Below, piece by piece: positions 4,684 to 53,276 of a DNA stretch of 56,872 bases. The DNA is from Planctomyces sp. SH-PL62. GTDB taxonomy: Bacteria; Planctomycetota; Planctomycetia; Planctomycetales; Planctomycetaceae. The stretch's first letter is position 1, and every line of letters begins with the position of its first letter. The stretch is from positions 1 to 56,872 of the forward strand of contig CAMDDX010000005.1 of the NCBI GenBank assembly GCA_945893075.1, written 5' to 3'. A model generated the notes under the pieces. That model was not told the origin of the DNA. It saw only the letters and a list, made by a program, of their open reading frames with translations, and ran no database searches. A program made the position numbers and the translations under genes.

Positions 4684-4735
4684 ACGTAGATCGGACGCCT
4701 ACGTCCGATCACCCGGACGTAGGCGTCCGGGCTAC
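4684..4735. repeat. GTAG-foot palindromic doublet
   Basis: Starts CGTAGATCGG and ends GGGCTAC. The unit CGGACGCCTACGTCCG (4692-4707) is repeated in inverted form at 4714-4729, and each unit is itself partly self-complementary. It lies 26 bases upstream of the ceramidase-like start. Confidence 0.75.
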
Positions 4736-4761
4736 AAACTCATTCGCAGGACCGATTCGCC

Positions 4762-6162
4762 ATGAACAATTTCTCGCGCCGCGACTTTCTCAAAGACACC
4801 GTCCTCACGACCGCTGCCGGTTGGTCGTTGTCCGTCAGCAATGTACTCAACGCCGCCGAGACCAACGCCGGTGGATTGCACATTGCTCCATTCAAGTTTG
4901 ATGTCACGCCGCCGCTGGGCCATTCGTGCTGCGGCGGTTGGATCAAGCCGATCGAGGTCGTGGATGATGCACTCGAAGCGGTCGGTGTCGTACTACTCGG
5001 AGCCGGCAAGCCGATCGTGTTGTGTGCCGTCGATTGGACGGGGTTGCTGAATGAAGCTCACGTCGAATGGCGCACGGCGCTCGCTCAGGCAGCCGGAACG
5101 ACGCCGGATCGTGTCGCCGTGCATTGCGTGCATCAGCACAACGCGCCGTTCGCGTGTCTGGAAGCCGAACGCATCGTGCTCGCCGAGGGGGATCTGCCGC
5201 ACATCATCGACCTCGACTTCTTCAAACGCTGCCTCGATGCAGGCCGAGCCGCCGTCGTGAAGGCGATCAAGCAAGCTCGCCCGGTGACGCACATCGGCTG
5301 GGGACAAGGCAAGATCGAAGGGGTCGCCTCCAACCGCCGAGTCCATCGCGACGAGACCGGCAAGGTGCTGGCGATGCGAGGCAGTGCGTGTACCGATCCC
5401 AAACTGATCGCGTTGCCGGACGGACTGATCGACCCGTTCCTGAAGACCGTCGCGTTCTTCGACGGCGAGAAGAAACTCGCGTCACTGCATTACTACGCAA
5501 CGCACCCGATGAGCTACTACGCCGACGGCCGAGCCACCAGCGACTTCGCCGGGCTGGCTCGCAAGCAGCGGCAGCAGGACGAACCGGATTGCCTGCACGT
5601 CTACTTCACCGGCTGCGCGGGGAACATCTCGGCCGGCAAGTACAACGACGGCTCGAAACCCGTTCGGCCGATCCTGACGAAGCGCGTCTACGACGGCATC
5701 GTCGCGTCGGAATCGAAACTCGAACGAGCTGAACTCAAAACGCTGGCATGGAAGACCGCGGAGATTCTGCCACCGCCACGCTCATCGCTGCACGCCGAGA
5801 TGATCGCACAACAAATCTCAACGAAAACCAACGCCGTCGTGAACCGCAACCGTCCGTCATTCATGCTGTCATGGCTACGCCGCGTCGAGAAACGCACCCC
5901 GATCGTGCTCAGCTCGCTGCACCTGGGGGGTGTGAAGCTGCTGCATCTCCCCGCCGAGTCGTTCATCGAATACCAACTCCGCGCCCAGGGCCTCGCGAAA
6001 GACCATTTCGTCTGCACCTCGGCCTACGGTGACGGCGGCCCGTGGTACATCCCGGTCAAAGAGGAATACCCCAACGGCGGCTACGAAGTCAGCGTCGCGT
6101 TCTGCGAACCAGAGATCGACGACATGCTGACGGAGGGGATGAAGCGAATCTTGCCGAGCTAA
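4762..6162 (+). CDS. Exported neutral/alkaline ceramidase-like hydrolase
   Basis: A 466-residue protein resembling the neutral/alkaline non-lysosomal ceramidase family. Members are zinc amidohydrolases that in characterised cases split ceramide, while planctomycete homologues are untested. The Tat motif SRRDFLK is at residues 5-11. The family pattern FDVTPPLG (46-53), the metal-site-like VHQHNAPF (123-130) and YYATHP (244-249) are present, followed by TGCAGNISAGKYN. A late GDGGPWYIPVKEEYPNGGYE motif closes the domain. It lacks the long C-terminal immunoglobulin-like domain of the eukaryotic enzymes. It is monocistronic, with the stop codon abutting a palindrome. Confidence 0.85.
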   Translation: MNNFSRRDFLKDTVLTTAAGWSLSVSNVLNAAETNAGGLHIAPFKFDVTPPLGHSCCGGWIKPIEVVDDALEAVGVVLLGAGKPIVLCAVDWTGLLNEAHVEWRTALAQAAGTTPDRVAVHCVHQHNAPFACLEAERIVLAEGDLPHIIDLDFFKRCLDAGRAAVVKAIKQARPVTHIGWGQGKIEGVASNRRVHRDETGKVLAMRGSACTDPKLIALPDGLIDPFLKTVAFFDGEKKLASLHYYATHPMSYYADGRATSDFAGLARKQRQQDEPDCLHVYFTGCAGNISAGKYNDGSKPVRPILTKRVYDGIVASESKLERAELKTLAWKTAEILPPPRSSLHAEMIAQQISTKTNAVVNRNRPSFMLSWLRRVEKRTPIVLSSLHLGGVKLLHLPAESFIEYQLRAQGLAKDHFVCTSAYGDGGPWYIPVKEEYPNGGYEVSVAFCEPEIDDMLTEGMKRILPS

Positions 6163-6313
6163 CCTGGAGTGCTGCGGCTCGACGCAGCCCTCCATTGTTT
6201 GCGGGAGTTGGGTCGCGAAGTTCGTTTGCTTGCGTCGTCACGAAAGATGATCGCGTGCTCGATGCGTGGGGGCGGATTGAATGGAGGGCTGTGTCGAGCC
6301 ACAGCACTCCAGG
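6163..6313. repeat. GGAG-foot palindromic doublet between convergent genes
   Basis: Arms of 34 bases (6163-6196 with 6280-6313, two mismatches) span the whole gap between two convergent genes, starting directly after one stop codon. Each arm holds its own hairpin: GCTGCG/CGCAGC on the left, GCTGTG/CACAGC on the right. The two mismatches are therefore a compensating pair. It could act as a two-way terminator. Confidence 0.85.
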
Positions 6314-6315
6314 AG

Positions 6316-8648: not shown

Positions 8649-8746
8649 GGGGTCGGGTCTACGATTTTTCGGAATTGGCCGGCCAGCGTTTTACCGACTT
8701 CATAACGCTCTGTCGGCCAATTCCGAAAAATCGTAGACCCGACCCC
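8649..8746. repeat. Long palindrome, GGGGTC class
   Basis: Perfect 32-bp arms (8649-8680 with 8715-8746). The outer end is GGGGTCGGGTCT and the loop is 34 bases. It shares the GGGGTC(A/G)GG lead with the elements at 20041, 20966, 25318 and 34400, while the inner sequence differs. It lies between two minus-strand genes. Confidence 0.9.
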
Positions 8747-11809: not shown

Positions 11810-11901
11810 GTTTCGGATCGTTGCGCTTTGCGAAACTGCTCGGCCACGGTAGAACGACATTGGTTCCACAAAGGTGATCGAAAGCCGCAGGAGTTTTGGT
11901 C

Positions 11902-14790
11902 ATGCGAGTTCCGCCTCTGCTTCTAGCGTTGAGCTTGCTCGCCCACCTCGGATGTCAGACCGACATTGCCCGCGGACAAGAACCATCACTGTTGATTCCC
12001 AATGCCGGTGACCTCGCGAAGTCATTGCAACTCTGGCTGCGAGCCGACGACCTGGCCCTGACTGACGGCGAGTCCGTCTTTATCTGGCCCGACCAGAGCG
12101 GTCACGGCCGCGACTTCTCCGCGACGAAAGGGGTGCGGCCGGACGGTGTCGGGATGCCGGCGAAGTTCGCCAAGGAGAGCACGCTGCAACGCCGGCCGGC
12201 CGTACGCTTCGATCCGGCAACGGGATTGGCGGCATCGCCACACAACCCGGTTGCGATTCAGGGCGATGCGGAATTGACGATACTGCTCGTCATCAACCTG
12301 CAACCACACGACGCTCAGCCGCCGCACGACGGTGTGATCGGCATCGGCAATCCGGCGAATCCCGCAGTCGATCCCGGCAAGCCGTTGGCCGCGCTCGTGC
12401 AGATCAATCGTGGCGAAGATCACGCGCTGCACTTCGCCGGTGGCTGGAATCACGACGCTTCGCTGGGAGCCGGTTCGTTCAAGCCGCTGTACGGGAAGTC
12501 GATCATCCTCAGCGTCACGAAGCGGCCCGGCCCGATCCGCAGCACGACGCGTTTCTTCATCAACGGTGAATTGGCCAACAAGTCGGCCGACGTACCGCTC
12601 GAAGGTCGCGACACGGTGCCCGACATTCAGCATCGCGCCGACATCGGCGCGTACATGGGCAAAGCGCTGAGCTGGGCCGGCAGCTTTCGCGGCGATGTCG
12701 GCGAAGTCATCGTCTACAACAAAGCTCTGAACGACGCCGAGCGACAAGCCGTCGAAGGTCATCTCGCCGACAAGTTCGGCATCGTGCTGGCCTCGCAAGT
12801 CGCCGCGACGCGAGCCACATTCACTCCGGAAGAGACCAGCTTCTGGGCCTATCAGCCAGTCAAAGATGCGGCTCCACCGAATGTGAAGAACGCCGCGCGA
12901 ATCAAGTCGCCGCTCGATCGCTTCCTGCTCGCCAAGCTGGAAGAGCAGGGAATGACTCTAGCGTCGCCGGCTGACAAGCGGACGCTGCTTCGCCGAGTCA
13001 CGTTCGATCTCATCGGCTTGCCCCCATCGCCGGAAGAGATCGCCGCGTTCTTGAAAGACGAATCGCCGCAAGCGTTCGAGACGGTCGTGAATCGGCTGCT
13101 CGATTCACCGCACTACGGCGAGCGTTGGGGGCGTCACTGGCTCGACGTCGTCCGCTACGCCGAATCCACGGCGAACGACGCGAATGCCGTCATGCGCTAC
13201 GCCTGGCGATATCGCAACTACGTCATCGACGCCTTCAATCGCGATCTGCCGTATGACCAGTTCATCGTCGAACAACTTGCTGGCGACTTGCTGCCGCCGA
13301 CAGACGACATGAGCGCGCGAATTCGGCGAATGACCGCGACCGGCTATCTGATGGTCGGCCCGAAGGCGCTCGCCGAAACTGACAAGGAACAATCCCGGCT
13401 CGACATTGTGGACGATCAAATCGACGTGACCGGGCGAGCATTTCTCGGCCTGACGATCGCGTGTGCGCGCTGCCACGACCACAAGTTCGACGCGATTCGC
13501 GCCGTCGATTACTACGCCCTCGCCGGCATCTTCCGCAGCACCGAGCCTTTCAAAGATGAGGCTCGCAACTCGTCAATGTGGTGGGAATTCCCGTTATTTG
13601 AAGCTCCGGGCGAGAAGCCGTTCATGGTCATGGCCCCGCAGGAAACGACGCCGCGAAACTTGCGCGTCCATCTGCGCGGCAACCGCTTCACGCTGGGGCA
13701 AGTCGTGCCGCGCGGATTCGTGCAAGTCGTAGGTCGGGCTTTCCAGCCCGACTCCCCCAACACGCGAGTCGGGCTGGAAAGCCCGACCTACGGGGGCAGC
13801 GGCCGTCTGGAACTCGCCCAATGGATCGCCAGTAAAGACAACCCGCTGACTGCTCGCGTGATGGTCAATCGGATTTGGCAGCATCACTTCGGCAAAGGTC
13901 TCGTCGCGACCAGCGATAACTTCGGCATGCGCGGCGAACGTCCATCGCATCCCGAGTTACTCGATTGGCTCGCCGCGCGATTTATCGAGAGCGGCTGGAG
14001 CATGAAGGCGATGCACCGCTTGATTTGCCTGAGTTCGACTTTTCAGCAGGCAACGCAGAGGGAGAGAGAGGGAGATGGGGAGAGGGGGAGAAATTCAAAC
14101 GACCCTACTGCGGGTTCTTTTCCCCCTCTCCCTCTCTCCCCCTCTCCCCCTCTTCAAACCGATCCCGACAACCACTGGCTCTCATCGTTCCCGCGTCGCA
14201 GACTCTCGGCCGAGGAGTTGCGCGACGCGGTGCTCGCAGTCAGCGGCAAGCTCGATCGCAAACCGGGTGCTGATGAGTCCGCCACGATCCTGTGGAAAGA
14301 GGCCGAAGTTCAGGACGAGAAGCGCGGCTTCGGTCCGAATCGGATGCAGGCCGATCATCCGTTCTACACCGAGTTCCCGAAACGGAGCGTTTACTTACCG
14401 ATCGTCCGCAATCTTCTGCCCGACGTGTTCGCCTTGTTCGATGTCGCCGATCCCAACGGCGTGACCACCCTGCGAAACGACACGACCGTCCCGTCGCAGT
14501 CGCTCTTCCTGCTCAACAGCCCATTCGTGCGTGAGCAGTCCCGGCATCTCGCTCAGCGATTGCTCTCGGACGACAAGGCCACCGACGAACAACGCCTGCA
14601 ACGCGCTCACGAACTCGCCTTCGGCCGACCGCTGACCACGAACGAGTTGGCACAAGCTCGCACGTTCCTTGATGCCTACCTGTCGGCCCAGGCAGCTCAA
14701 GCCCGTCCGGAAGCCGACCGGCGACTATCGACGTGGCAAAGCTACTGCCAAGCCTTGTTCTGCCAGAACGAGTTTTTCTACGTGGAGTGA
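11902..14790 (+). CDS. DUF1549/DUF1553 protein with N-terminal LamG-like domain
   Basis: Large exported planctomycete-type protein (962 aa), function unknown. A signal peptide (MRVPPLLLALSLLAHLG) is followed by a concanavalin/LamG-like domain (residues ~30-300, with WPDQSGHGRDF). DUF1549 follows (RFLLAKLEEQGMTLA to CARCHDHKFD, a CxxCH heme-like motif near residue 520), then DUF1553 (NPLTARVMVNRIWQHHFGKG, DNFGMRGERPSHPELLDWL). The ATG has AGGAG 8 bases upstream. It carries two in-frame foreign-looking inserts, a palindrome near residues 609-631 and a G/A-C/T palindrome near 719-752. It forms the usual pair with the next DUF1501 gene. Confidence 0.93.
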   Translation: MRVPPLLLALSLLAHLGCQTDIARGQEPSLLIPNAGDLAKSLQLWLRADDLALTDGESVFIWPDQSGHGRDFSATKGVRPDGVGMPAKFAKESTLQRRPAVRFDPATGLAASPHNPVAIQGDAELTILLVINLQPHDAQPPHDGVIGIGNPANPAVDPGKPLAALVQINRGEDHALHFAGGWNHDASLGAGSFKPLYGKSIILSVTKRPGPIRSTTRFFINGELANKSADVPLEGRDTVPDIQHRADIGAYMGKALSWAGSFRGDVGEVIVYNKALNDAERQAVEGHLADKFGIVLASQVAATRATFTPEETSFWAYQPVKDAAPPNVKNAARIKSPLDRFLLAKLEEQGMTLASPADKRTLLRRVTFDLIGLPPSPEEIAAFLKDESPQAFETVVNRLLDSPHYGERWGRHWLDVVRYAESTANDANAVMRYAWRYRNYVIDAFNRDLPYDQFIVEQLAGDLLPPTDDMSARIRRMTATGYLMVGPKALAETDKEQSRLDIVDDQIDVTGRAFLGLTIACARCHDHKFDAIRAVDYYALAGIFRSTEPFKDEARNSSMWWEFPLFEAPGEKPFMVMAPQETTPRNLRVHLRGNRFTLGQVVPRGFVQVVGRAFQPDSPNTRVGLESPTYGGSGRLELAQWIASKDNPLTARVMVNRIWQHHFGKGLVATSDNFGMRGERPSHPELLDWLAARFIESGWSMKAMHRLICLSSTFQQATQREREGDGERGRNSNDPTAGSFPPLPLSPSPPLQTDPDNHWLSSFPRRRLSAEELRDAVLAVSGKLDRKPGADESATILWKEAEVQDEKRGFGPNRMQADHPFYTEFPKRSVYLPIVRNLLPDVFALFDVADPNGVTTLRNDTTVPSQSLFLLNSPFVREQSRHLAQRLLSDDKATDEQRLQRAHELAFGRPLTTNELAQARTFLDAYLSAQAAQARPEADRRLSTWQSYCQALFCQNEFFYVE
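13728..13792. repeat. GTAG-foot doublet inside a coding sequence
   Basis: Perfect 26-bp arms (13728-13753 with 13767-13792), each with an 8-bp hairpin GTCGGGCT/AGCCCGAC behind GTAG. It is translated in frame as VGRAFQPDS...VGLESPTYG within the DUF1553 protein, between its two conserved blocks. Confidence 0.92.
14056..14155. repeat. Purine/pyrimidine palindrome inside a coding sequence
   Basis: A G/A-rich run (14056-14093) is followed by a C/T-rich run (14114-14155) that is broadly complementary to it. It is read in frame as a low-complexity insert (GEREGDGERGRN ... PPLPLSPSPPL) in a loop of DUF1553. It could form a long hairpin or triplex-type DNA. Confidence 0.75.
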
Positions 14791-14797: not shown

Positions 14798-14874
14798 GTA
14801 GGGTGGGTCGAGTCATCGAGACCCACCAATTGGCGCGACGAAGTGGTGGGTCTCGATGACTCGACCCACCCTAC
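14798..14874. repeat. GTAG-foot palindromic doublet at a gene junction
   Basis: Perfect 31-bp arms (14798-14828 with 14844-14874), beginning GTAGGGTGGGTCGAG and ending with CTAC. It makes up nearly the entire gap between the DUF1553 stop and the DUF1501 start, ending 11 bases before the chosen ATG. Confidence 0.9.
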
Positions 14875-21064: not shown

Positions 21065-24000
21065 CTACTCAGCCGGCTGTGGTTCGATGACCCCGCCGTC
21101 CCATTCGATCCAGCATTGCGGGAGGGCTTCATGCAGTTTCTCGACGCCGGGTTTGGTGACTTTGGTTTCGTTCAGAACGACATGTCGCAGCGTCTTGATC
21201 TTCTCCAGGTGTATCAGTCCTTTGTCGCTGATCCCGGTTCGCGCAAGTTTGAGCACTTCCAGAACCGGCAATGTGGCGACGTGTGCCAAGTCGGCATCGC
21301 GGACATTCGATCTCCATAAATCGAGTTGCCTGAGCGTTCGAAGCGGGCGGAGAGAGGCTGCCGAATCGGCCTCAAAAGAAGCGCCTGGAAGTCCGAGGAT
21401 TCGGAGTTCGTCTAACGACTCCAGGGGGTCGAGAACCTTCTCGCGAATCCGTAATGACGACACACTCACGTTACGAAGTGCGCGAATCTTAGCCACCGCC
21501 TTGATCTCGGCCGCTTGAAAACTTGTTCCTGAGAGTCCGAGGTAATGAAGATGTTTTAGAGATTCTAGTCCTTCGATCCCTATCGCGGTTATCGAGTTGC
21601 CGTCCAATTCAAGTTCGGACAGATTCGAAAATTGCGAGAGCAATGGTGTCGATGCGTCAGTCAAATGGGCACCACTGAGGAGGAGTCTCTCAAGTTTGCT
21701 GGTGTTCGAGAATCCTTTGAAGGCATCGTCACCAACAGGAATGCTATTGAGGACCAGTTCGCGAAGTTGCGAGAGAGGTGTCATTCGCGCAACCGTCTTG
21801 CCCGTGATTTTCGAGTGCCACAAATTCACCGATTCAAGCTGAGTGAGGTTGCCGATCCATTCGAGACCGTTGTCGGAGACGCTGGTGTAGCCCAGGCCCA
21901 GGTGCCGCAGTCGCAGTGCGTCTCGCAAGGTTCCGACGTTCTCGTCATTGACCTCGGCATTCCCCTCGAAGTCAGCTTTGATCAGGTCAAAGTTGTCTTG
22001 CGGAAGCTGGCCGTCCTTTGCGATCGCTTGCTCATTGTCGTTCTGCCGGATCGTGACGCTGCCGCCGAGTTTCAACACCCATTCGGCAATGCGGCGATCT
22101 GGCGATGCAACCTCGCCCCGCAAGCTCGGCAGGGCGTTGAGCAGAGCTTGCACACCGGCGGGCGTGACGCCGGGCGAGTCGTTGCATCCGACCTCACGGA
22201 GCTTGGGCAGATTCCGCAACTGCATGAGGCCCTGATCGGTCACTTGGGTGCCATGAAGTTCCAAAAGGGTGAGATTCTTCAGTCCCGTGAGATGAACCAA
22301 GCCTTCGTCACCAATGCTTGTGCCATTGGCATGTAGCACCTGCAGAGCTTTCATTCCCGTCAAATGGGCCAATGCTTGATCGGTCACGTTGGTGCCGTTC
22401 ACAACAACAGATTCGATCTGTCCCAATTGACCGAGGTGCTCCCACGTTTCCGGGACGAAGCCGCGTCCCTCCAAACCCAGCGAACGAAGCGTGCTCACAT
22501 CCCGTAAATGAGCGAGACCAGCCCCCGTCATCTTGGTACTTGAACGAAGTCCTAGATTTCCGAGTTGCCGGAAGTCCTTCAAGCGGGCAAGCCCTTGATC
22601 GGTGATGCCCGGTGTGTTCAGTGCAATGCTGGTCAGCGGGAGGTTCTTCAGCGCATCGAGACCAGCATCCGTGACTCTCGTGTCACCTAGCAAAAGCTCT
22701 CTCAATTGCGGCAACTCAGAAAGGTGGAGCAGCCCCGCGTCGGAGATGTTGGTCTTATACAGGTCGAGGTATTCGAGCGCCGTCAATGACTTCAAATGCT
22801 CAAGACCGCGATCGGTGATCGACGATTCGCTCAATAAAAAACGGCTGAGTCGCGGCATGTCCTTGAGATGCGCCAACCCCGCATCGGTAATGGAGGCGAC
22901 TCCAGCGACGTTGATCTCCACGATCTGCTGGAATTGTGAGACTGCCGCAAATCCCTCGTTCCCGGCTTTCTGCCAGTTCAAGCCGATTAATTTCAGCGAC
23001 TGCGTCTCGACTAAATGACGAAGACCGGGGCCGCGGACGGACGTCAGCCGCAGCCCTAAGACTTCAAGCTGCCGCAACGGCTTGAGATGCTGCAGCGAGT
23101 CGTCGTCGAAGTTGGCACCAACAAGATCCAATTCTCGCAAATCGACCAGCTTGCCGATCTGTGCCAGGCCAGTCGGAGTTAAGTGCTTTGTGTCGAGATG
23201 GAGCGCAGTGAGACTCCACAATTTGGCAAGCTGCGCGACGGCTTGGTCATCGAATCGCGTTTCGTTGCACCAGATCCTCGACAGCTTTCGAAGTTTGGCC
23301 AACGACTGCACGCCTTTGGCCGACATCACGAAAACGCCGCCTTCGAACACTTCGAGATCAGGAAACTGCGCGAATAACTCGGCATGTTCATCACGGTAGA
23401 TCGTCGTTTCGGTTCCGTGGATGGCGTCGATACGGAAGTCGCCTTCGGGCACTTCGACGATTCCGTTGTTTCTGGCCTCGCCGACGAAGCCGTGCAAGAC
23501 ACATCCCATTGCCAATAGCTTCTTGGCCGCTTCGCGGCGATCTGGCGATACAGGCGGTGTGATCCGCACCGGTTTGGGCTTTGGCTCCTCGATATCTCCG
23601 AGCAGTTTCTTGTCGCTCATGGCTCGCACGCGGCGGCCGATGCGTTCGACTTTCACGACGACGGTTTCCCCCTTCTTCAGCGTGAAGGACTTCGTGTCGA
23701 ATTCCAGGTCGCCTTGTTTGACGTGCAGCGTGTGCTCGCCGGGTTTGAGCCGGATGTCTTTTTGGCCCTCGACCTTCACAACGATGTCGGTGCCTTGGAT
23801 GGCAACCTCGATTTGCGGATCGGTGATCTCGATCCGCAGCGTCCCGCGATTCGTTTGCACAAAAATGATGACGCCGGCGAGCAAGACGAGGACCGAGGCG
23901 AGGCCGATGGCAACGGCGCGGCGCGTAGGACGGGCACTCTTGCCCGTCGCTGCTTGGGGACGGGCAAGAGTGCCCATCCTACTGGCGGTCTGCGCTTCGC

Positions 24001-29888: not shown

Positions 29889-31394
29889 CGATCTCGCTGT
29901 CGCCGCTTCCATGATCCGTTGCTCGGTGAATTCACCGCGGCGGAACTCGCCCGTCAGCCGGCCTTCGCATAAAACGAGAATTCGATCGCAGAGAGTAATA
30001 AGTTCCGGCAACTCGCTCGACGTGACAATCAAGCCGAGTCCGTCGCGACAAAGCGAGTCAATCAGTTTGTAAAGCTCGGCCTTCGCGCCGACATCGACGC
30101 CGCGCGTGGGATCGTCGAGCAACAACACCTTCGGTTGCGTGCGCAGCCAGCGAGCGATGACGCACTTCTGTTGGTTGCCGCCGCTGAGGCTGGTGATCGC
30201 CGCCTCGCTCCCCGCTGACTTCACGCCGAGCCGCACGATGGATTCGTCCGCGGACGCTCGTTCGCGGCGGCCGGAGATGAGGCCCAGCGAACAGGCTTCG
30301 TCGAGCGTGCAGACGGTGACGTTGTCGCGCACCGTCAGATGCGAAAACAGGCCGAGCCGTTTGCGGTCCTCGGTGACGAGGGCCATGCCAGCCGCGACGG
30401 ACTCTTCGGGATGCGAGAAGCTCACCGGCTGACCGTCGAGCACGATGCGCCCCTGCGGCGGAATCTCGCTGGCCCCGAACAGGCATTCGAGCAACTCGGT
30501 GCGACCCGCTCCCATCAGCCCGGCGATGCCGAGCACTTCGCCGCGCCGCAGTTCAAAAGACACATCTTTCAATCGCCACGGCCGAGCGTGTCCCGGCCAC
30601 GGCAGCGAAAGTTTCTCGACGCTGAGCACCACGTCTCCCGGCTGACGCGGTTGATCGAACGACGTCTCTTCAATCTCGCGGCCGACCAGCAAGTGCGTGA
30701 CTTCGCGCGGAGTCGCTTCATCGCGCCGCAGAGTCCGCACATGCCGGCCGTCGCGTAGCACGGTGATGCGGTCGGCCAGCCGGAAGATCTCGTCCATCTT
30801 GTGCGAGATGTAGAGGATCGTGACGCCATCGGCTCGCAGCCGCCCGATGATCTCGAACAGCCGTTCGGTCTCCGTTTCGGTCAGTGCGCTGGTCGGTTCA
30901 TCCATGATGAGGATGCCGGCTCGTTTCGACAGAGCCTTCGCAATCTCAACCAACTGCTGATCGCCGACTCGCAGTTCACCGACGCGCTGATCGGGATCGA
31001 GCCGACAGCCAAGCTGTCGAAACAACTCTGCCGCCTCTTGCCGCGCCGAGGATTCGTCGAGCAACCCAAACGCTCCGCGCCGCTCGCGGCCGAGAAAGAT
31101 GTTCGCCGCGACCGAAAGCTGTTCGACGAGATTCAGTTCCTGATGAATGATGCTGATGCCGGCCACCTCGGCATCGCGGGTGCTTGTGAAGCGGACCGGC
31201 TCGCCGCGCAACCGCAGTTCGCCGTCGTACTCGGTGATGACGCCGCTGAGAATTTTCATCAGCGTGCTCTTGCCGGCTCCGTTTTCGCCGACGATCGCGT
31301 GCAGTTCACCGGCAGCGATTTCCAGCGAGACGTCCTGCAATGCGACGGTCCCCGCGAACCGCTTCGTGATCTGCCGCACTTCAATCAATGACAT
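29886..31394 (-). CDS. Sugar-type ABC transporter ATP-binding protein
   Basis: A 502-residue double-ATPase of the RbsA/XylG/MglA group that powers import of a sugar or other small solute at the inner membrane. First domain: GENGAGKSTLMKIL (Walker A), VGDQQLVEIAKAL in the signature position and LIMDEPTSAL (Walker B). Second domain: the degenerate GLMGAGRTELLECL, then LSGGNQQKCVIARWL and VLLLDDPTRGVDVG. ATG at 31394 has AAGGA 9 bases upstream. No permease or binding protein lies beside it, so the gene is an orphan here and its substrate cannot be assigned. Confidence 0.94.
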   Translation of the reverse strand: MSLIEVRQITKRFAGTVALQDVSLEIAAGELHAIVGENGAGKSTLMKILSGVITEYDGELRLRGEPVRFTSTRDAEVAGISIIHQELNLVEQLSVAANIFLGRERRGAFGLLDESSARQEAAELFRQLGCRLDPDQRVGELRVGDQQLVEIAKALSKRAGILIMDEPTSALTETETERLFEIIGRLRADGVTILYISHKMDEIFRLADRITVLRDGRHVRTLRRDEATPREVTHLLVGREIEETSFDQPRQPGDVVLSVEKLSLPWPGHARPWRLKDVSFELRRGEVLGIAGLMGAGRTELLECLFGASEIPPQGRIVLDGQPVSFSHPEESVAAGMALVTEDRKRLGLFSHLTVRDNVTVCTLDEACSLGLISGRRERASADESIVRLGVKSAGSEAAITSLSGGNQQKCVIARWLRTQPKVLLLDDPTRGVDVGAKAELYKLIDSLCRDGLGLIVTSSELPELITLCDRILVLCEGRLTGEFRRGEFTEQRIMEAATARS

Positions 31395-33027: not shown

Positions 33028-33165
33028 GGCGAACTCCTCGTGAGGCACGGCGGCATTGAGCCTGTTGACGTCACCCTATCGCAGATGATTCACAGTCGAT
33101 ACTGAACCTCGATCGTCAGGGAGACGAAACTCAACAGCCTCGTCCTCAATCCAGCGATGTTTGCA

Positions 33166-33475
33166 AACCCCACCGAGCTTGCCTCATTGATCTCTACACA
33201 ACTCCAAGATCAAGACTCTGATTTAGGTCTCGCTCATGCAGTGAATGAGTCTTTCTCCCATTCGCTGCCTCCCTAAATTCGCTGTCGAGTCCTTCTCTTT
33301 GAATTGAAGGCGTCCCCGACGGCTTCGGACGACAAAAGATCGACAGCGAATTTAGGGAGACAGCGAATGGAATGCCTGCCGACGGTCTCGTGACGACGCG
33401 TGGCACCGCCTCTTGCCAAGAATTGTCTGCGGATCGACGTTGTGTAGAGACCAATGAGGCCAGCTCGGTGGGGTT
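33166..33475. repeat. Nested palindrome (310 bases)
   Basis: Outer arms of 37 bases (33166-33202 with 33439-33475, two mismatches) enclose inner 31-base arms (33258-33288 with 33340-33370, one mismatch). The 631-base gap between 33028 and 33658 holds this and no gene I can support. One palindrome appears to have been inserted into the loop of another. Confidence 0.88.
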
Positions 33476-33658
33476 GCTGGTTTGATGCCTAGTCCCACGG
33501 TCCAATGGTGCTTACGTTGCCGCTGGGCGAGTGAGCGGCATCCGCCGCGACGGACGAGTCGCCCGTCTTGGGAATGGAGATCGACTCCACGACATTCCAT
33601 GACACCGGTGGCTAGCGCCATTCCGCTCAAAGTCTGACTCCAACACGATTGGCAACAC

Positions 33659-37045: not shown

Positions 37046-37094
37046 GTAGCCGAACTCGTGAGAGTTCGGACCGAAGTCTCACGACTTCGGCTAC
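37046..37094. repeat. GTAG-foot doublet between tandem DUF1501 genes
   Basis: GTAG + CCGAACTC/GAGTTCGG hairpin (37046-37069), then CCGAAGTC/GACTTCGG + CTAC (37071-37094). Each 8-bp stem is perfect, while the two halves differ by paired changes. It lies 14 bases before the next start codon. Confidence 0.92.
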
Positions 37095-37107: not shown

Positions 37108-39267
37108 ATGTTTTCCATCCTCGACCAATCACTCCCTTTGACCGATCGAGTTGCTCGCCGCGAATGGCTGCGCGTCGGGGGCTTGAGCGCGTTGGGAGTT
37201 TCGCTGCCGCACTTGCTTCGCGCGGCGGAGACACCAGCAGTGCGACTCGGTCCGGTGCCAAAGTTGGCGGGTGAGTTAGGCTCGACGTTTGGCAAAGCAA
37301 AGAATCTAATTTTCCTCTGGCTTCAAGGTGGTCCTCCTCAGCATGAAACGCTGGATCCAAAACCGGATGCCCCCTCCGAGATTCGTGGTCCGTTCAAACC
37401 GATCTCGACCAACGTCCCCGGCATTCAATTCTGCGAACTGCTGCCGCGCACCTCGTGCTATGCCGACAAGCTGGCCGTTGTTCGCTCACTCTCGACGCGC
37501 GATGACAACCACGATGTGAGCGGGTATTGGCTGCTCACCGGTTATCCGTATGGACCGGGGAGCGCGCGGCAGATCAAGCCAAACGATTGGCCGTACTTCG
37601 GCTCGGTCGTGAAGATGCTCAAGCCGAGCGAGAAACTGCCGGCTCTGACATCGGTCTGGATTCCGGACATGATGCGACTCAACGACAACGTGACTCCGGC
37701 CGGACAGACGGCGGGATTCCTCGGCAAGTTGTGGGAACCGGAACGCTTCGTCGGCGACCCGGCGTTGCCCGATTACGAGATCGAAGGACTGCGGCTGATC
37801 GGCGACGTCACCAAGATCCGAGTCGATCGCCGCCGCGACGTGTTGCAGCAATTGGAAAGTCGCTTCGACGAAACGCTGCGCAGTGGATCGGTTGCCGCTT
37901 GGGATCGACTCTCGCAACAGGCGTTCGAGTTGGTGACCAACGGCGGCGCGCGAGCGGCTTTCGATCTCAGCAAAGAATCAGACAAAACTCGCGACCGTTA
38001 TGGCCGGTACACATGGGGGCAATCGGTGCTGCTGGCTCGACGATTGATCGAAGCGGGTGTGCGATTGGTTCACGTCAATTGGGCTCGCGATCCCGGAGAC
38101 AACGCCGTCGATAATCCGCTGTGGGATACGCACGCGCTCAACGCGGATCGGCTGCAAGACAACCTCTGCCCACAGTTCGATGTCACGTTCGCCGCGCTGA
38201 TGGATGATCTCACTGAGCGGGGCTTGCTCGATGAAACGCTGGTCGTCGTCATCGGTGAGTTCGGTCGCACTCCAAAGATCAACGCGAACGGAGGCCGCGA
38301 CCACTGGGGCCACGTCTTCAGCTTCGCGATGGCCGGTGCCGGCATTCGCGGTGGGCAAGTCATCGGAGCCAGCGACAAGAACGGAGCGTATCCCGCGACC
38401 TCGCCTTTCAGCGGCGGCGACCTGACGGCCACGATGTTTCATCTGCTGGGGATCGATCCGAGCGGATTCTTTCCCGACAACCTGAACCGTCCGCATCCGG
38501 TCACGAAGGGCGAACCGATCGCGGCCATGCTGGCCAGTTCGCCGAGCAAGATTGAGCTGTGCAAATCCGAAGGCGATCCGGCCCTCGTGCCTCCGTTCGA
38601 TGCCAGCTTGCTGCTGGATACGAACTTCAAATCCGATCTTCCCTTGGTCGCTCCTGCGCCACCCTCGCGCGACAAAGGTTGGCGAGCGTTTCCTATCTGG
38701 ACCAAAGAGACGGCTGGTGGAATCGCTGTTCGCAAGGAAGCCGCTACGGTCGGGACGGAGTCCCAACCTACGGTCTGCGTAGGCTACGGTCTGGAAGATG
38801 ACTCGGCGGGTTCGGTGATCGAGCAAGGTTCGCGAGCGGTGCTCGCGCAAGAGATTCGCAGTGCTCGTGGCGGTCACTACTCGATGACCGTCAAAGTCAC
38901 TGGAGTCGGTTCGTCCGCCGATGAGTTCGACAAGACATTTCTAGCGAACATGAATTGTCGCCTCGTCCTGTTCCGCTTTCAGAACATCAACAAGGATCCC
39001 CACACGGTCAGCGAACTGGCCTCCGCGGAATTCCGGCCGTCGTTCGGTAAGACCGAGACATTCAAACTGGACCGCTTCCTCGGCTCGACGGTGGGGGGCT
39101 CGAATTTCGCCATCGGCAACGGTCTGGGAGTCGCCATCGTTGTCGAGAAGAAGACGTCCGGCCCACTCACGCTGCCGAAGAGCGAATCTCACCGGGCCGC
39201 ACTGCGAATCGAGTCCGTCAGCCTCGAATTCAACCCGCGCAAACGAGATGAATCTGTGACGGTGTGA
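37108..39267 (+). CDS. DUF1501 protein with a C-terminal extension
   Basis: A 719-residue protein. Residues ~1-470 are a normal DUF1501 domain: VARREWLRVGGLSALG leader, LIFLWLQGGPPQHETLDPK, IGEFGRTPKIN, GGRDHWGHVFSFAMAGAG. The following ~250 residues are extra, and begin after PVTKGEPIAAMLASSPSK. They hold strand-rich segments such as ARGGHYSMTVKVTG and FRFQNINKDPHTVSEL, which suggests a beta-sandwich or carbohydrate-binding-like module. A palindrome is in frame near residues 546-560 (VGTESQPTVCVG). ATG 37108 was chosen because the longer frame overlaps the upstream gene. Confidence 0.9.
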   Translation: MFSILDQSLPLTDRVARREWLRVGGLSALGVSLPHLLRAAETPAVRLGPVPKLAGELGSTFGKAKNLIFLWLQGGPPQHETLDPKPDAPSEIRGPFKPISTNVPGIQFCELLPRTSCYADKLAVVRSLSTRDDNHDVSGYWLLTGYPYGPGSARQIKPNDWPYFGSVVKMLKPSEKLPALTSVWIPDMMRLNDNVTPAGQTAGFLGKLWEPERFVGDPALPDYEIEGLRLIGDVTKIRVDRRRDVLQQLESRFDETLRSGSVAAWDRLSQQAFELVTNGGARAAFDLSKESDKTRDRYGRYTWGQSVLLARRLIEAGVRLVHVNWARDPGDNAVDNPLWDTHALNADRLQDNLCPQFDVTFAALMDDLTERGLLDETLVVVIGEFGRTPKINANGGRDHWGHVFSFAMAGAGIRGGQVIGASDKNGAYPATSPFSGGDLTATMFHLLGIDPSGFFPDNLNRPHPVTKGEPIAAMLASSPSKIELCKSEGDPALVPPFDASLLLDTNFKSDLPLVAPAPPSRDKGWRAFPIWTKETAGGIAVRKEAATVGTESQPTVCVGYGLEDDSAGSVIEQGSRAVLAQEIRSARGGHYSMTVKVTGVGSSADEFDKTFLANMNCRLVLFRFQNINKDPHTVSELASAEFRPSFGKTETFKLDRFLGSTVGGSNFAIGNGLGVAIVVEKKTSGPLTLPKSESHRAALRIESVSLEFNPRKRDESVTV
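38744..38790. repeat. GTAG-class element inside a DUF1501 gene
   Basis: CTACG at both edges (38744 and 38769) with a central GGGACGGAGTCCC hairpin, followed by a second TAGGCTACGGTC. It is read in frame as VGTESQPTVCVG in the extra C-terminal part of the protein. Confidence 0.65.
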
Positions 39268-42590: not shown

Positions 42591-42654
42591 CGCTCGTAGT
42601 GACCCGATTGATCGGGTCCGGTTCACGACCCCATCAATGGGGTCACTACGAGCG
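42591..42654. repeat. GTAG-foot doublet between DUF1501 genes
   Basis: The left half has CGTAGT followed by hairpin GACCCGAT/ATCGGGTC; the right half has GACCCCAT/ATGGGGTC followed by ACTACG. Each 8-bp stem is perfect and the halves differ by one G/C-to-C/G paired exchange. It ends directly at a stop codon. Confidence 0.92.
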
Positions 42655-44309: not shown

Positions 44310-44359
44310 TGAATCGCTGGAAGTGACCACTCTTGTTGTTGAGTTCGCAAAGACAATCT

Positions 44360-46786
44360 ATGCCACGAAATGTTTTGTTCCTGACGGTACTCCTCACGCT
44401 CGGATGGTCGAGTGCCGCGTTTCCGCAAGCATTTGTTGAGCAGCTTTCGCCGCCAGTGCTGCAGCGCGGAACGGTGAACCGGATCGAAGTGCTTGGCAGT
44501 GACATGGCAGAGGCGATCGGGCTTTGGAGTTCGCTACCGTCGGACATGTTTCGTGCTCGGCCGGTTGAAGCGAGCGGTGCGAACAGAGCTGTGTTCGATG
44601 TCGAATTGACCGCTCAAGCGCCGCTTGGCTTTTACGGCCTGCGACTGGCGACTCGCAGCGGGCTGAGCAACGTGCATTTGTTTCTGGTCGATGAGTTGCC
44701 GGTGACTCGTAGCTGGACTCTCCGAGTCGAGCCGCCGTCAGAAAAAGTGCTCGACTCGGAGAGTCTAGCTGCGGCAATCAAACTGCCGGCGTGCATCACC
44801 GCGCCTTGTCGTCCGGCGGCGATCGACCGCTATTCGATCACGGTTGAAAAAGGCCAGCGCGTCGCGTTCGAGGTCATCGGCAATCGGCTCGGCAAGGACT
44901 ACGACCCGCTCGTGCGAGTTCGCGATGCGAAAGGCAAAGTGGTTGCCGAATGCGATAACTCAGTCGGTCTGTTCTTCGATTGCCGGTTCGCTCACACATT
45001 TGCCGAAGCCGGAACTTTCACAGTCGAAGTCCGCGACTCGCGGTTCGAGGGACATCCGACGTGGCACTACGTCCTGCGAATGGGTGACTTCCCGGAAGCT
45101 CGCGTGTCGGTGCCGTCGGCCGCGCGAATTGGTGAGACAACGACGCTCACCTTCCCACAGGTTCCGGGTTTGCAGTTGCCCGTCGAGTTCGCTGCCAATC
45201 GTCCGCTCGGCAGTTACTTTCAAGAGGTCCGGCACTCACCGAGCGGACTCGCGACCTGGATTCCACTCGTGCTCAGCGACTTGCCGACGGCCGTCGAAGT
45301 TGAGCCGAACGATACTTTAGAGACGGCGACTCTCGTTTCCGCAAAAGTTCCAGCGACGTTGAACGGTGTGCTCGGCAAGCCGGGGGATGTGGATTGGTTC
45401 GCGTTCGAGTTGGCCAAAGATCAGAAGCTCAACGTGCAAGGGATCGCTCGCACGATCGGCTCGGCGGCGGATTTAGAACTGGTGCTGTTCAATGCCGACG
45501 GCCGCGAGGCGCGGCGTGTGGATGACACCGATCTCGACGAAGCCAGCTTCGATTTCAAAGCGGACAAGGCCGGGCTGTATCGCCTGCAAGTGCGCGACCT
45601 CGCACGCGACGGCGGGCCGGAGTTTGCCTATCGCATCGACGTGCGAGCCGGTGGGCCGCAGTTTCAATTGCTCGCCGAAGCGGCCGAACTCACGATCCCA
45701 CAAGGGACGTATCAGCCGCTGTCGCTGAAGGTGACACGCACCGAATTCAATGGTGAGATTCAACTGGAACTGCGCGGTGCTCCCGCCGGCATGACGCTCG
45801 AACCGAACGTGATCCCCGCCGATGCAATTGAGTTTGTCGGCCGCGTGATCGTTGCGCCGAGTAGCCTGACTCTCCGAGTCGGGTCGGCTTCCGGAAAAGC
45901 ACCCGACTCGGAGAGTCAGGCTACGGGACTGCACTCGCTGCAAGTGATCGGCACGGCATCGGTCGAAGGCGGGACCGCATTGCAGGGCATCACCAAGACG
46001 AAGCCACTGGTCGATCGGCAACTCAAGAACGTGGACTTGATCCCGTATGCACTCCGCGAGGATCAGCGACATCTCCCGCCGTCGCTCACTAACCAGATCG
46101 CGGTCATGATCACGCCACCGCCGCCGTTCAATGTTGAGCTCCCCGAATCGTTGATCAAACTCACGCGCTATCAGACCGCCGAGTTCCCCATCGTGACGAC
46201 ACGCAGCGCCGGCTTCACGGCCCCGATCACGTTTACCGTCACCGGAGGCCAGATCGGCGTCGAGGCTGAAGAGCGAAACCAACTCTACGCCCGCTTCACT
46301 CCGGCGACCGCCGACCGACTCACTTCGTCGGGGACGTTCTTCAATCGCATCCTCACAAATCTCGCGAAGCACCGTGTCGATCTGACGGCGTCGGCCGAGG
46401 TCAACGGTCATCGTGTGAACCTCATCCGCACATTCCGACTGGAAGTGCAAAGCGCTTTCCAGCCCACCATCGAACCAGCTCTGCCCACCGCCGAACCGGG
46501 CGGGATTGTCCGCTTCAAAATTCTCGCCAACCGAGTCGCCACGTTCGATGGTCCGGTGACGTTCACGCTCGGCCCGCAGTCTGGCTTCACGTTTCCCGAA
46601 AACGTCACGATCCCAAAGGGTGCCGAGTCCGTCGATGTGGAACTCAAAGCCGATCCGAAGCTGAACCCCGGCCGCCACAACCTTCGCCAGCAAGTCGCCG
46701 GCTTCGTCGGCAAGTACGAAGAAAGTTTCAACCTGCCGAACATCCCCATCGAAATCACAAAACCTATGACACCCGGAGGAAAGTAG
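44360..46786 (+). CDS. PPC-domain exported protein
   Basis: An 808-residue exported protein with a signal peptide (MPRNVLFLTVLLTLGWSSA). It has PPC-type (pre-peptidase C-terminal) beta-sandwich repeats, clearly near residue 310 with VEVEPNDTLETATLVSAKVP and GDVDWFAFELAKDQKL, and an earlier one with RYSITVEKGQRVAFEVIGN. The C-terminal half is Ig-like (FTVTGGQIGVEAEERNQLYA and later FTLGPQSGFTFPENV). Such proteins often neighbour DUF1549/DUF1553 genes and likely form part of their surface complex. Two palindromes are translated in frame near residues 117-137 and 501-522. Confidence 0.85.
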   Translation: MPRNVLFLTVLLTLGWSSAAFPQAFVEQLSPPVLQRGTVNRIEVLGSDMAEAIGLWSSLPSDMFRARPVEASGANRAVFDVELTAQAPLGFYGLRLATRSGLSNVHLFLVDELPVTRSWTLRVEPPSEKVLDSESLAAAIKLPACITAPCRPAAIDRYSITVEKGQRVAFEVIGNRLGKDYDPLVRVRDAKGKVVAECDNSVGLFFDCRFAHTFAEAGTFTVEVRDSRFEGHPTWHYVLRMGDFPEARVSVPSAARIGETTTLTFPQVPGLQLPVEFAANRPLGSYFQEVRHSPSGLATWIPLVLSDLPTAVEVEPNDTLETATLVSAKVPATLNGVLGKPGDVDWFAFELAKDQKLNVQGIARTIGSAADLELVLFNADGREARRVDDTDLDEASFDFKADKAGLYRLQVRDLARDGGPEFAYRIDVRAGGPQFQLLAEAAELTIPQGTYQPLSLKVTRTEFNGEIQLELRGAPAGMTLEPNVIPADAIEFVGRVIVAPSSLTLRVGSASGKAPDSESQATGLHSLQVIGTASVEGGTALQGITKTKPLVDRQLKNVDLIPYALREDQRHLPPSLTNQIAVMITPPPPFNVELPESLIKLTRYQTAEFPIVTTRSAGFTAPITFTVTGGQIGVEAEERNQLYARFTPATADRLTSSGTFFNRILTNLAKHRVDLTASAEVNGHRVNLIRTFRLEVQSAFQPTIEPALPTAEPGGIVRFKILANRVATFDGPVTFTLGPQSGFTFPENVTIPKGAESVDVELKADPKLNPGRHNLRQQVAGFVGKYEESFNLPNIPIEITKPMTPGGK
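44709..44772. repeat. GTAG-foot doublet inside the PPC gene
   Basis: 24-base arms (44709-44732 with 44749-44772, two mismatches): GTAG foot on the left, GCTGC on the right, and an inner GACTC/GAGTC hairpin. It is read as TLRVEPPSEKVLDSESLAA. It shares its arm with the copy at 45861. Confidence 0.85.
45861..45924. repeat. GTAG-foot doublet inside the PPC gene
   Basis: Perfect 24-bp arms (45861-45884 with 45901-45924), from GTAGCCTGACTC to GAGTCAGGCTAC, with an inner GACTCTCCGAGTC hairpin. It is read as LTLRVGSASGKAPDSESQAT. Confidence 0.93.
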
Positions 46787-51706: not shown

Positions 51707-51769
51707 ACCGTCAGGCTATTCGTCGCACTCCAGACAAACAACGACTCCCAGGGAATTCCGGGGCGAACA

Positions 51770-51845
51770 AGCTGGCGAAAGATAAAGGGCGGAAAATGAA
51801 ACAGTCTGTTGGCTTTCATTTTCCGCCCTCCATTTTTCGCCAGCT
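51770..51845. repeat. Palindrome, GCTGGCGAAAAATGG class
   Basis: 32-base arms (51770-51801 with 51814-51845, four clustered mismatches) in the divergent gap before the enolase-superfamily gene. Same class as 27031 and 31445. Confidence 0.85.
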
Positions 51846-51930
51846 CTTCATTTTCCTGCACAGAGGTGACTCCAGAAAGTTTCGTAGGTCGTAGACAATT
51901 TGCGAGAAATCAAATCCCAGGAAGGACCAC

Positions 51931-53085
51931 ATGAGAATCGACCATCTGGAGACGATCACACTCCGCTTCGAGTACGTCGATGGCTTTCGTTACGCCGGCG
52001 GCCAATGCACGGCGCGAGTGACTTCGCTGGTGCTGGTGCATACCGATTCGGGACACATCGGGATCGGCGCGGCGTATTCGCATCCGGGGTTGGTGCATCT
52101 GATCGTGCAGGAGCAACTCGCGCCGCTATTGATTGGCGAAGACCCAACCGAGGTCGAATCGCTCTGGCAAAAGATGTATCAGATCACTCGCTGGTACGGT
52201 CGCAAGGGAGCGGCGATGTCGGCCATCGGAGCGATCGACACGGCTTGTTGGGATCTGCGCGGCAAGTCGCTGGGCCAGCCGGTGTGGGCGTTGCTCGGCG
52301 GACAGCAGGCGACGTGCCCCGCGTATGCGAGTGCTCTGTTGTGGAAGGAACCGGCCGCTCTGGCCGAAGAAGCAGCGCGGCTGGTCGAGCGGGGGTTTCG
52401 TCGCGTGAAGATGCGCTTGGGTTATGGCGGCGACCTTGATCGCGCGGCGGTGCGCGCGGTGCGCGAGGCAATCGGGCCGAACTGCGATGTGATGTGTGAC
52501 GGTTCGATGCGGTACTCGTTGGCCGATGCGGTATCGCTCGGCAAGTTTCTGGCGGACAACAACGTCTTCTGGTTCGAGGAACCGTTTGAGCCGGAAGACA
52601 TCGACTCATACGTCGCATTGCGATCGCGAGTGTCGGTCCCGCTGGCGGCTGGCGAGAACGAATTCGGACTGCAAGGCTTTCGCGAACTGATTCGCGCCGG
52701 AGCGTTAGACATCGTGCAGCCTGACACGAGCCGTTGCGGAGGAATCACCGAAGCCAAACGAGTCGCTGACATGGCACAAACGGCCGGCCTGCGAGTCGCT
52801 CCGCATACCTGGAGCGATGCGGTCGCAGTCATAGCCAACGCGCACGTCGTCGCGTCGCTGCCGCACGGGATCACCGTCGAAGTCGATCAAACAGGCAACC
52901 CGTTTATTGAAGAACTGCTCGTCGAACCGCTCGTCGTGCGCGACGGCCAATTGTCGCTCAGCAATGCTCCCGGTTTGGGAATCGAGTTGAACCCAGTCAC
53001 GTTGCAACGCTACCGGCTGGAAGATCCGCTGCATCTGCCGGACGGTTCGTATTCGGACATGATCTTTGGGAAAGCGTTCCTGTAA
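51931..53085 (+). CDS. Mandelate racemase/muconate lactonizing enzyme family protein
   Basis: Enolase-superfamily enzyme (384 aa), probably a sugar-acid dehydratase or racemase that abstracts the proton alpha to a carboxylate. The catalytic and metal residues are in place: VKMRLG with Lys160/Arg162 (K-x-K/R), Asp190 in DVMCDGSM, Glu216 in WFEEPFEP, Glu242 in AAGENEFG, and His292 in VAPHTW. The N-terminal capping domain is normal. The ATG follows AGGAAGGACC. It is monocistronic, and its stop codon is directly followed by a nested palindrome. The exact substrate cannot be told from sequence. Confidence 0.93.
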   Translation: MRIDHLETITLRFEYVDGFRYAGGQCTARVTSLVLVHTDSGHIGIGAAYSHPGLVHLIVQEQLAPLLIGEDPTEVESLWQKMYQITRWYGRKGAAMSAIGAIDTACWDLRGKSLGQPVWALLGGQQATCPAYASALLWKEPAALAEEAARLVERGFRRVKMRLGYGGDLDRAAVRAVREAIGPNCDVMCDGSMRYSLADAVSLGKFLADNNVFWFEEPFEPEDIDSYVALRSRVSVPLAAGENEFGLQGFRELIRAGALDIVQPDTSRCGGITEAKRVADMAQTAGLRVAPHTWSDAVAVIANAHVVASLPHGITVEVDQTGNPFIEELLVEPLVVRDGQLSLSNAPGLGIELNPVTLQRYRLEDPLHLPDGSYSDMIFGKAFL

Positions 53086-53276
53086 CCTGACTCTCCGAGT
53101 CGGGACTTAACCCGAATTGCGCACCGACAGGAGTTATCCGTGACAGTGTGTCACACACTAACCCGACGCGCAAGCGAGGCCATGTCTTGACGCGGGCCTC
53201 GCTTGCGCGTCGGGTTGGTTTGGGGCGGTGCGCAGTTTCGGTTAAACGGAATACATCCCGACTCGGAGAGTCAGGC
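53086..53276. repeat. Nested palindromes after the enolase-superfamily gene
   Basis: Outer perfect 20-bp arms CCTGACTCTCCGAGTCGGGA (53086-53105 with 53256-53275) have the same sequence as the PPC-gene insert and end with CTAC. Inside is an imperfect stem (about 53107-53125 with 53227-53245). Innermost are perfect 21-bp arms (53160-53180 with 53196-53216). It fills the gap between the convergent genes. Confidence 0.9.

What the first reader, a model, noticed from the sequence alone, without database searches (positions are those of the whole stretch)
4684..53276. A large family of REPIN-like doublets with GTAG/CTAC feet and non-conserved stems
At least ten elements start GTAG and end CTAC (779, 4684, 11712, 13728, 14798, 23925, 29836, 37046, 42591, 45861). 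Each has two inverted units that fold on their own. In Escherichia coli REPs, GTAG at the 5' foot of the hairpin is the tetranucleotide read by the RAYT transposase. Here the feet stay constant while the stem sequences differ from locus to locus, unlike ordinary REPs, which share one sequence. This suggests a mobiliser that reads the foot and the hairpin shape rather than the stem sequence.
Basis: partly seen in the sequence, partly recalled or inferred. Interest (0 to 1): 0.9.

Follow-up and report, generated by a model that had tools for sequence, protein, structure and literature searches.

The report
Swappable palindrome slots in planctomycete genomes
This planctomycete genome carries dozens of families of small, probably mobile palindromes, among them many GTAG-footed REPIN-type doublets, and related species often hold a quite different palindrome at the very same spot, even inside genes, as if the spots were reusable docking places.

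Summary
The ten GTAG...CTAC doublets are real and above chance. They are not one family with free stems: in 1.26 Mb of the same genome nine of the ten belong to multi-copy clusters (6-49 units), so the window shows a few copies of each of many REP families. Within several clusters stem pairs vary with compensation while foot and mostly the loop stay. Y1 (RAYT-type) genes flanked by such repeats occur in the genus; here one GTAG family lies beside a broken Y1 gene. The unexpected part came from congeners. At 64 own palindrome sites with alignable orthologs (193 site x genome rows), 90 rows hold a different palindrome, 44 the same, 34 none, 25 other. Eleven sites lie inside genes with frame kept; 8 of these hold a different palindrome in at least one congener. 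Some palindromes sit inside others. Best reading: many co-resident REPIN-like families, most likely Y1-mobilised, recycle a limited set of tolerated slots, the resident serving as a neutral landing pad. Hairpin-targeted insertion is possible but not shown. The elements are a known kind; slot turnover on this scale may be new.

The parts
780..842 (.). GTAG..CTAC doublet, imperfect units, no near relative found in the sample
4591..4658 (.). CCGTACCGCGACCGTCAGGGAGCGG palindrome beside the 4686 doublet
4686..4735 (.). GTAG doublet, family NNCGGACG-CCTA-CGTCCGNN (cluster of 34 units in 1.26 Mb)
8649..8746 (.). GGGGTCGGGTCTACGATTTT palindrome; the same stem flanks a Y1 gene in own L005
11712..11809 (.). 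GTAGGGTGGGACAAGC doublet (cluster of 6); a doublet of this kind lies beside a broken Y1 gene in this genome (L008)
13729..13791 (.). GTAG doublet with TTCC loop (cluster of 45), in frame inside ORF 11896-14790 between PSCyt2 and PSD1 domains; several congeners hold other palindromes here
14798..14874 (.). GTAGGGTGGGTCGAG doublet (cluster of 10); no insert in G006 and G007, different palindrome in G003
23925..23982 (.). GTAG doublet GACGGGCACTCTTGCCCGTC (cluster of 45)
29836..29889 (.). GTAG hetero-doublet with two different stems (cluster of 49); other palindromes at the orthologous site in G003, G007, G010
33164..33476 (.). nested element: arms of a CCCCACCGAGCTTGCC family enclosing a CATTCGCTGCCTCC palindrome at 33258-33370
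37046..37094 (.). GTAG hetero-doublet (cluster of 49); no element at the site in G002, G006, G009, G011
38748..38771 (-). single GTAG unit GTTGGGACTCCGTCCCGACC (cluster of 16)
42596..42649 (.). GTAG doublet TGACCCGATTGATCGGGTC (cluster of 9); another GTAG family in G007 and G010
44709..44770 (.). doublet of the GACTCTCCGAGTC family (cluster of 31), in frame in ORF 44333-46786; GCGCTAGC palindrome in G007 and G010
45861..45924 (.). GTAG doublet of the same family in the same ORF; GTAGTGACC-type element in G003, G007, G010, net length 49 against 64 (difference 15, in frame)
53086..53281 (.). nested element: interrupted doublet of the GACTCTCCGAGTC family enclosing an AACCCGACGCGCAAGCG palindrome at 53160-53216

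Best explanation
The window lies in a planctomycete genome that hosts dozens of families of short palindromic doublets. One superfamily is the GTAG-tagged REP/REPIN kind; another has GGGGTC(A/G)GG feet. Each family was most likely spread by a single-strand Y1 (HUH) transposase acting on the foot plus hairpin loop, with the stem tolerating compensated change. Insertions survive only at tolerated places: between genes and in linkers inside proteins. Once such a place holds a palindrome, that palindrome is itself a neutral pad of some 50-120 bp into which later palindromes of any family can land without harm; the older one then decays. The address is thus kept while its content is exchanged between species. 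Shown: multi-copy families, compensated stems, Y1 genes flanked by some families, filled and empty sites, different palindromes at orthologous addresses, nested remnants. Inferred: the transposase for most families, the loss of the old element after insertion, and the neutral-pad logic.
For: Families: 30 GTAG clusters of 3 or more (423 members, some clusters not palindromic) in 1.26 Mb; 577 palindromes in 1.70 Mb of own and congener sequence with 33 families of 5 or more. Compensation: in clusters of 61, 49, 45 and 34 units many stem pairs are at least 96% Watson-Crick although up to 62% of units differ on both sides from the commonest pair, while one loop type makes up 51-89% of each cluster. 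Y1 genes: 8 PF01797 matches in this genome, 7 over the cut-off; GGGGTCrGG palindromes on both sides of Y1 in own L005 and L006, G003 L204 and G010 L205, three different stems among the four (L005 and L204 share one); GTAG repeats on both sides in L070, L072, L083, L095, L097. Slot exchange: discovery set 142 rows at 45 sites: 66 different palindrome, 32 same, 26 no insert, 18 other; replication set 51 rows at 19 sites: 24, 12, 8, 7. In-frame intragenic sites: 11, of which 8 hold a different palindrome in at least one congener; L059:8796 shows four palindrome types in four genomes, L038:14687 four types in five. Controls without an own palindrome: intragenic rows 13 of 8,396 and 30 of 2,815 with a palindromic insert; intergenic rows 4 of 46 and 2 of 10. 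With the stricter score used for own elements 72 of the 90 'different' rows still count, and 45 of the 49 control inserts. Remnants: 11 nested palindromes against 0 in the outward-facing control, a twelfth hit being a tandem duplication; G007 at the L038:12913 site shows an old arm of one family beside a complete palindrome of another.
Against: In this genome only one GTAG family was seen beside a Y1 gene (L008), and that gene looks broken: its match is below the curated cut-off and covers only the first half of the profile, in a 143-aa frame. Most families therefore lack a visible mobiliser here; the assembly has 484 contigs and is 92.9% complete. Most of the 57 Y1 loci examined show no such repeat on both sides. 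Few intergenic controls exist, because most longer intergenic regions already hold a palindrome (11 control regions of 20 nt or more; 3 of 32 rows with an insert). 12 of the 90 'different' rows are GTAG against GTAG and could be drift. Genomes are MAGs, rows from related congeners are not independent, and clusters made by single linkage lump sub-families, so part of the stem compensation is between sub-families.
Confidence: 0.6

Rival explanations
1. Hairpin-targeted replacement: the single-strand transposases, or replication forks, insert new palindromes preferentially into the loop of a resident hairpin because it is exposed single-stranded DNA, so palindromes beget palindromes.
For: Nested palindromes 11 against 0 outward-facing; of 24 solitary arms (of 193) within 40 nt of another palindrome 22 have it on the inner side. 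Precedents: REPs inside palindromes in A. variabilis, T. roseum and H. neapolitanus (PMC3733652); IS elements that insert into REPs (PMC1525189, passages).
Against: The 22:2 count is conditional on the old arm being broken; complete palindromes side by side number 11 (8.7 expected under uniform placement). By my tally inner events are about 26 and outer at most 13, and a rough estimate of mine says that random insertion into intergenic space already gives nesting of this order.
Confidence: 0.2
2. Pure saturation: there are few tolerated places, each species gained its palindromes independently after speciation, and coincidence only reflects that these places are nearly full.
For: 44 of 74 intergenic regions (crude gene calls) hold an element; the intragenic slot at 13729 lies in an inter-domain linker.
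Against: In genes, relatives hold different palindromes at 8 of 11 own sites but at only 14 other places (crude gene calls); a capture-recapture estimate of mine gives about 30 tolerated places in six stretches of about 157 kb, which seems few. Layered remnants show succession at one site.
Confidence: 0.2
3. One GTAG family with free stems, read only by foot and hairpin shape.
For: Constant foot and compensated stem pairs.
Against: Multi-copy clusters with their own stem and loop; different Y1 genes carry different repeats.
Confidence: 0.05
4. Chance hairpins or ordinary transcription terminators.
For: A few palindromes are terminator-like (window 713-758 followed by a T run).
Against: Enrichment over shuffles, multi-copy families, in-frame positions inside genes.
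Confidence: 0.02

Closest known systems
GTAG-tagged REP superfamily of Di Nocera et al. 2013 (24 families; SMAG repeats of Stenotrophomonas are GTAG 6-9)
   Same: GTAG foot, mostly 6-9 bp stems, short loops, head-to-head dimers, several families in one genome, complementary stem variants, some copies inside genes; R. baltica and O. terrae listed (PMC3733652; parts 1-2 of 8 and passages seen)
   Different: More palindrome families side by side here than the paper's text describes for one genome in what I saw, and exchange of families at orthologous addresses; the paper gives one hint (different REPs about at the same site of recB in two Xanthomonas species)
REPINs (Bertels and Rainey 2011, PMC3116915; search listing and start of abstract only)
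   Same: Inverted doublet as the repeated unit; here also hetero-doublets with two different stems in several copies
   Different: No single dominant population; a Y1 partner is missing for most families in this assembly
Group-3 TnpA-REP/REP pairs (Corneloup et al. 2021, PMC8266576; sections 17 and 20 and the first part of 23)
   Same: Perfect short stems; loop bases and GTAG matter; stem largely tolerant
   Different: No biochemistry here; loops differ by family
TIRtrons: Y1 genes flanked by long terminal inverted repeats (PMC3733652, passages)
   Same: GGGGTCrGG palindromes flank Y1 genes and form repeat families
   Different: The flanks are complete palindromes and several stem variants share one foot in one genome
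Rickettsia palindromic elements (RPE; as described in PMC3733652, otherwise recalled)
   Same: Palindromes inserted in frame in protein genes
   Different: Here the same in-frame site holds unrelated palindromes in different species

Membership tests
GTAG-tagged REP superfamily | unpaired GTAG at one end of a short stem-loop | tested here: met
GTAG-tagged REP superfamily | high copy number, dispersed | tested here: met
   118 palindromes with GTAG/CTAC feet in 1.26 Mb
REPIN | two inverted units behaving as one element | tested here: met
   hetero-doublets recur as pairs; whole elements present or absent at orthologous sites; movement itself was not observed
RAYT-mobilised REP | cognate Y1/HUH gene flanked by the same repeat | tested here: inconclusive
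   own genome: one GTAG family beside a broken Y1 gene (L008); other genomes: both sides in L070, L072, L083, L095, L097, one side in L187; none found for most families
RAYT-mobilised REP | cleavage of single-stranded REP by the transposase | not testable with these tools
   needs purified protein
TIRtron (GGGGTCrGG superfamily) | inverted repeats on both sides of a Y1 gene | tested here: met
   L005, L006, L204, L205; in L007 on one side only

The most novel reading that the evidence does not exclude
Palindromes are the landing sites of palindromes: in this genus hairpin-forming residents actively attract unrelated single-strand mobile palindromes, so that fixed addresses, including in-frame linkers of proteins, are re-written again and again with different hairpins while the address is inherited.
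Probability: 0.2. Interest if true: 0.85.

Novelty: new variant of a known kind. Interest (0 to 1): 0.6.

Why it matters
How REPs choose where to land is hard to study where one or two families dominate. Here a dozen congeners with alignable synteny and dozens of families give many replacement events at shared addresses, so target choice, replacement and decay can be measured. The in-frame slots suggest that protein linkers are re-written by mobile hairpins. The finding also warns that hairpins at conserved positions need not be conserved regulatory RNAs.

Tried and rejected
One free-stem family: rejected by clustering. Chance: rejected.

The 22:2 inner/outer asymmetry of solitary arms first looked like proof of loop targeting; I withdrew that after counting complete side-by-side pairs, because the first count is conditional on a broken arm. 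One of the 22 has arm and palindrome in the same family cluster.

First intragenic calls came from a crude gene finder; five sites so called (L017:848, L024:2367, L038:3817, window 28185, window 37046) had length differences that are not all multiples of three and were counted as intergenic. Sites 14057 and 46796 of the window, first called intragenic, were also not in the final in-frame set. One of the 11 final intragenic sites (L017:6052) is only a 23-bp hairpin. Rows dropped before counting: own elements whose flanks do not align within 60 nt on both sides (45 of 67 elements kept in the discovery set; the total for the replication set was not printed, 19 kept). The 45861 site failed that filter and is told only. 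'Same' means six or more shared 8-mers, so a strongly diverged copy of one family can be counted as different; rows with a shared element inside a longer insert count as same. Relatives' inserts were called palindromic at a lower score (12) than own elements (14), in cases and controls alike; one search gives the stricter count.

Literature searches for slot re-use gave only the recB remark in PMC3733652 and the orthoswitch of REP classes around orthologous RAYT genes in PMC3686654 (passages). The held library lacks most subscription journals, so absence from print is not claimed. RepRanger (PMC12306157) has no planctomycete passage for the terms searched.

Corrections made when the report was checked against the calls: number of congeners at site 13729 (8, not 9 as in my notebook), L008 described as broken rather than cut by the contig end, stems shared by L005 and L204, the second nested element in the window.
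Full report
What was claimed and what is there. The ten GTAG...CTAC doublets exist. GTAG-hairpin units number 19 in the window against 0-6 in 20 shuffles, and GTAG is the best of 256 feet. Seven of ten pass a strict hairpin rule; 780, 11712 and 45861 do not.

Stems are not free. In 1,256,872 bases of the same genome (60 stretches of 20 kb plus the window) units were clustered by the 20 bases after GTAG. Nine of the ten window elements belong to clusters of 6 to 49 units: 4686 (34), 11712 (6), 13729 and 23925 (45), 14798 (10), 29836 and 37046 (49), 42596 (9), 45861 (31). For 780 no near relative was found. Some clusters are not palindromic (for instance GTAGTCGAACGC, 20 members). Inside palindromic clusters stem pairs change on both sides and stay paired: cluster 1 has pairs 3-6 variable at 96-100% Watson-Crick and loop GCCA in 43 of 49; cluster 3 shows compensated change at the two basal pairs only, with loop CCTA in 26 of 34. 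Some pairs are poorly kept (pair 3 of cluster 2 at 76%, of cluster 3 at 79%, of cluster 4 at 23%), and the clusters lump sub-families. The pattern is what one expects if the enzyme reads foot and loop. It agrees with in vitro work on group-3 TnpA-REP, where loop bases and GTAG mattered for cleavage and stem swaps had moderate effects (PMC8266576, sections seen).

More than GTAG. A general inverted-repeat scan gives 423 palindromic elements in 1.26 Mb, about one per 3 kb, 118 with GTAG/CTAC feet. Over own and congener sequence (1.70 Mb) 577 palindromes form 33 families of five or more. A second superfamily has GGGGTC(A/G)GG feet and several stems.

Mobilisers. The genome has 8 matches to Y1_Tnp, 7 over the cut-off; 34 of 40 genomes searched, the own one included, have at least one. 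GGGGTCrGG palindromes lie on both sides of the Y1 gene in own L005 and L006 and in G003 L204 and G010 L205, with three different stems (L005 and L204 share one), and on one side in L007. GTAG repeats lie on both sides of Y1 in L070, L072, L083, L095 and L097 and on one side in L187; L092 and L093 have GTGG-footed hairpins on both sides (positions of the genes). In the own genome L008 has a GTAGGGTGGGAC doublet beside a Y1 gene that looks broken: match below the cut-off, first half of the profile only, frame of 143 aa. All 57 Y1 loci fetched were looked at; most show no such repeat on both sides. So mobilisation by Y1 is well supported for a few families and inferred for the rest.

Orthologous sites. 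Eleven genomes of the same genus (handles G001-G011) could be aligned at DNA level in part. The first intragenic element examined, inside the PSCyt2-PSD1 gene, showed that all 8 congeners whose flanks aligned carry an insert of a multiple of three bases there, palindromic or a degenerate palindrome, of at least three kinds. I then measured this. Discovery set: window, L038, L017, L024 against stretches of G003, G006, G007 and G010, with G005 for the latter three only and G009 and G011 for the window only. Of 142 site x genome rows at 45 sites, 66 hold a different palindrome, 32 the same, 26 no insert, 18 something else. Replication set, with the same rules: L059 and L045 against G003, G007, G010 gave 51 rows at 19 sites: 24, 12, 8, 7. 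Together 39 of 64 sites have a different palindrome in at least one congener. Of the 90 'different' rows 12 are GTAG against GTAG and may be drift; 42 have GTAG on exactly one side; 56 have at least one side outside my seven named foot classes. Controls: at points inside genes without an own palindrome 43 of 11,211 rows have a palindromic insert (13 of 8,396 and 30 of 2,815; points 30 nt apart, so not independent); at intergenic regions without one 6 of 56. The intergenic control is small and not matched for gene orientation.

Inside genes. Eleven sites lie in one called gene with every length difference a multiple of three; 8 of these hold a different palindrome somewhere. L059:8796 has a GGGCAGGTTGAAAACCTGCC-type palindrome in the own genome, a GGTGAGCC palindrome in G003, a GTAGTCCCGCC palindrome in G007 and a GGGGTCGGG palindrome in G010. 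L038:14687 shows four kinds in five genomes. The window site 13729 corresponds to residues 611-632, in the linker between PSCyt2 (339-550) and PSD1 (636-925), a place where an insert is easily tolerated.

Succession. Remnants of older palindromes stand around younger ones: 11 nested cases (and one tandem duplication not counted) against none in the outward-facing control, two of them in the window, at 33164-33476 and 53086-53281. In G007 at the L038:12913 gene site an arm of the GGCGAG family stands beside a complete GCGCTA palindrome; G003 and G010 show only the latter and the own genome has a third kind. The inner/outer count of 22:2 overstates targeting; side-by-side complete pairs number 11, so the inner excess is modest, and random insertion into intergenic DNA could give nesting of this order (my rough estimate, not a call).

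Reading. I take the window's elements to be members of the GTAG REP/REPIN kind in a genome crowded with mobile palindromes, some of them clearly tied to Y1 genes. Tolerated addresses are few; a resident palindrome enlarges such an address and makes it safe for the next, so content turns over while addresses persist. Active hairpin targeting remains possible.

Identity. That the genome is a planctomycete rests on these titles and on its PSCyt2, PSD1 and DUF1501 genes; no taxonomy was looked up.

Known or new. Several co-resident GTAG families, dimers, intragenic copies and complementary stem variants are published (PMC3733652; parts 1 and 2 and passages). The same paper notes different REPs at about the same site of recB in two Xanthomonas species, and REPs inside palindromes in three species. 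Orthologous RAYT genes flanked by different REP classes are described as an orthoswitch (PMC3686654, passages). I found no systematic account of exchange of unrelated palindromes at orthologous addresses in the searches.

Noticed in passing
L005, L006 (own genome), L204 (G003), L205 (G010): Divergent Y1 transposase genes flanked on both sides by complete GGGGTC(A/G)GG palindromes, three stem sequences among the four genes: constant foot with variable stems in a second superfamily.
   Followed up: partly
L067:16420-16619, L146:13376-13573, window 53086-53281: What look like three-layer nests of palindromes: an outer interrupted element, a middle inverted repeat and a complete inner element.
   Followed up: partly
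L008:25-591: A broken Y1 gene (143-aa frame, first half of the profile) with a GTAGGGTGGGAC doublet directly beside it, the only GTAG family seen beside a Y1 gene in this assembly.
   Followed up: partly
window 14057-14153; L038:12913-12995: Palindromes made of low-complexity GGGGAGAG / CTCTCCCC runs inside genes; origin unclear.
   Followed up: no
window 37046 site in G003, G007, G010: Where this genome has a 49-bp doublet, three congeners have about 310-490 bp of other sequence that looks coding.
   Followed up: no
cluster 7 (GTAGTCGAACGC, 20 copies): Repeated non-palindromic GTAG context, perhaps a conserved codon stretch of a paralogous gene family.
   Followed up: no
L092 (G024) and L093 (G014): Y1 genes flanked on both sides by GTGG-footed hairpins, a foot variant.
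   Followed up: no
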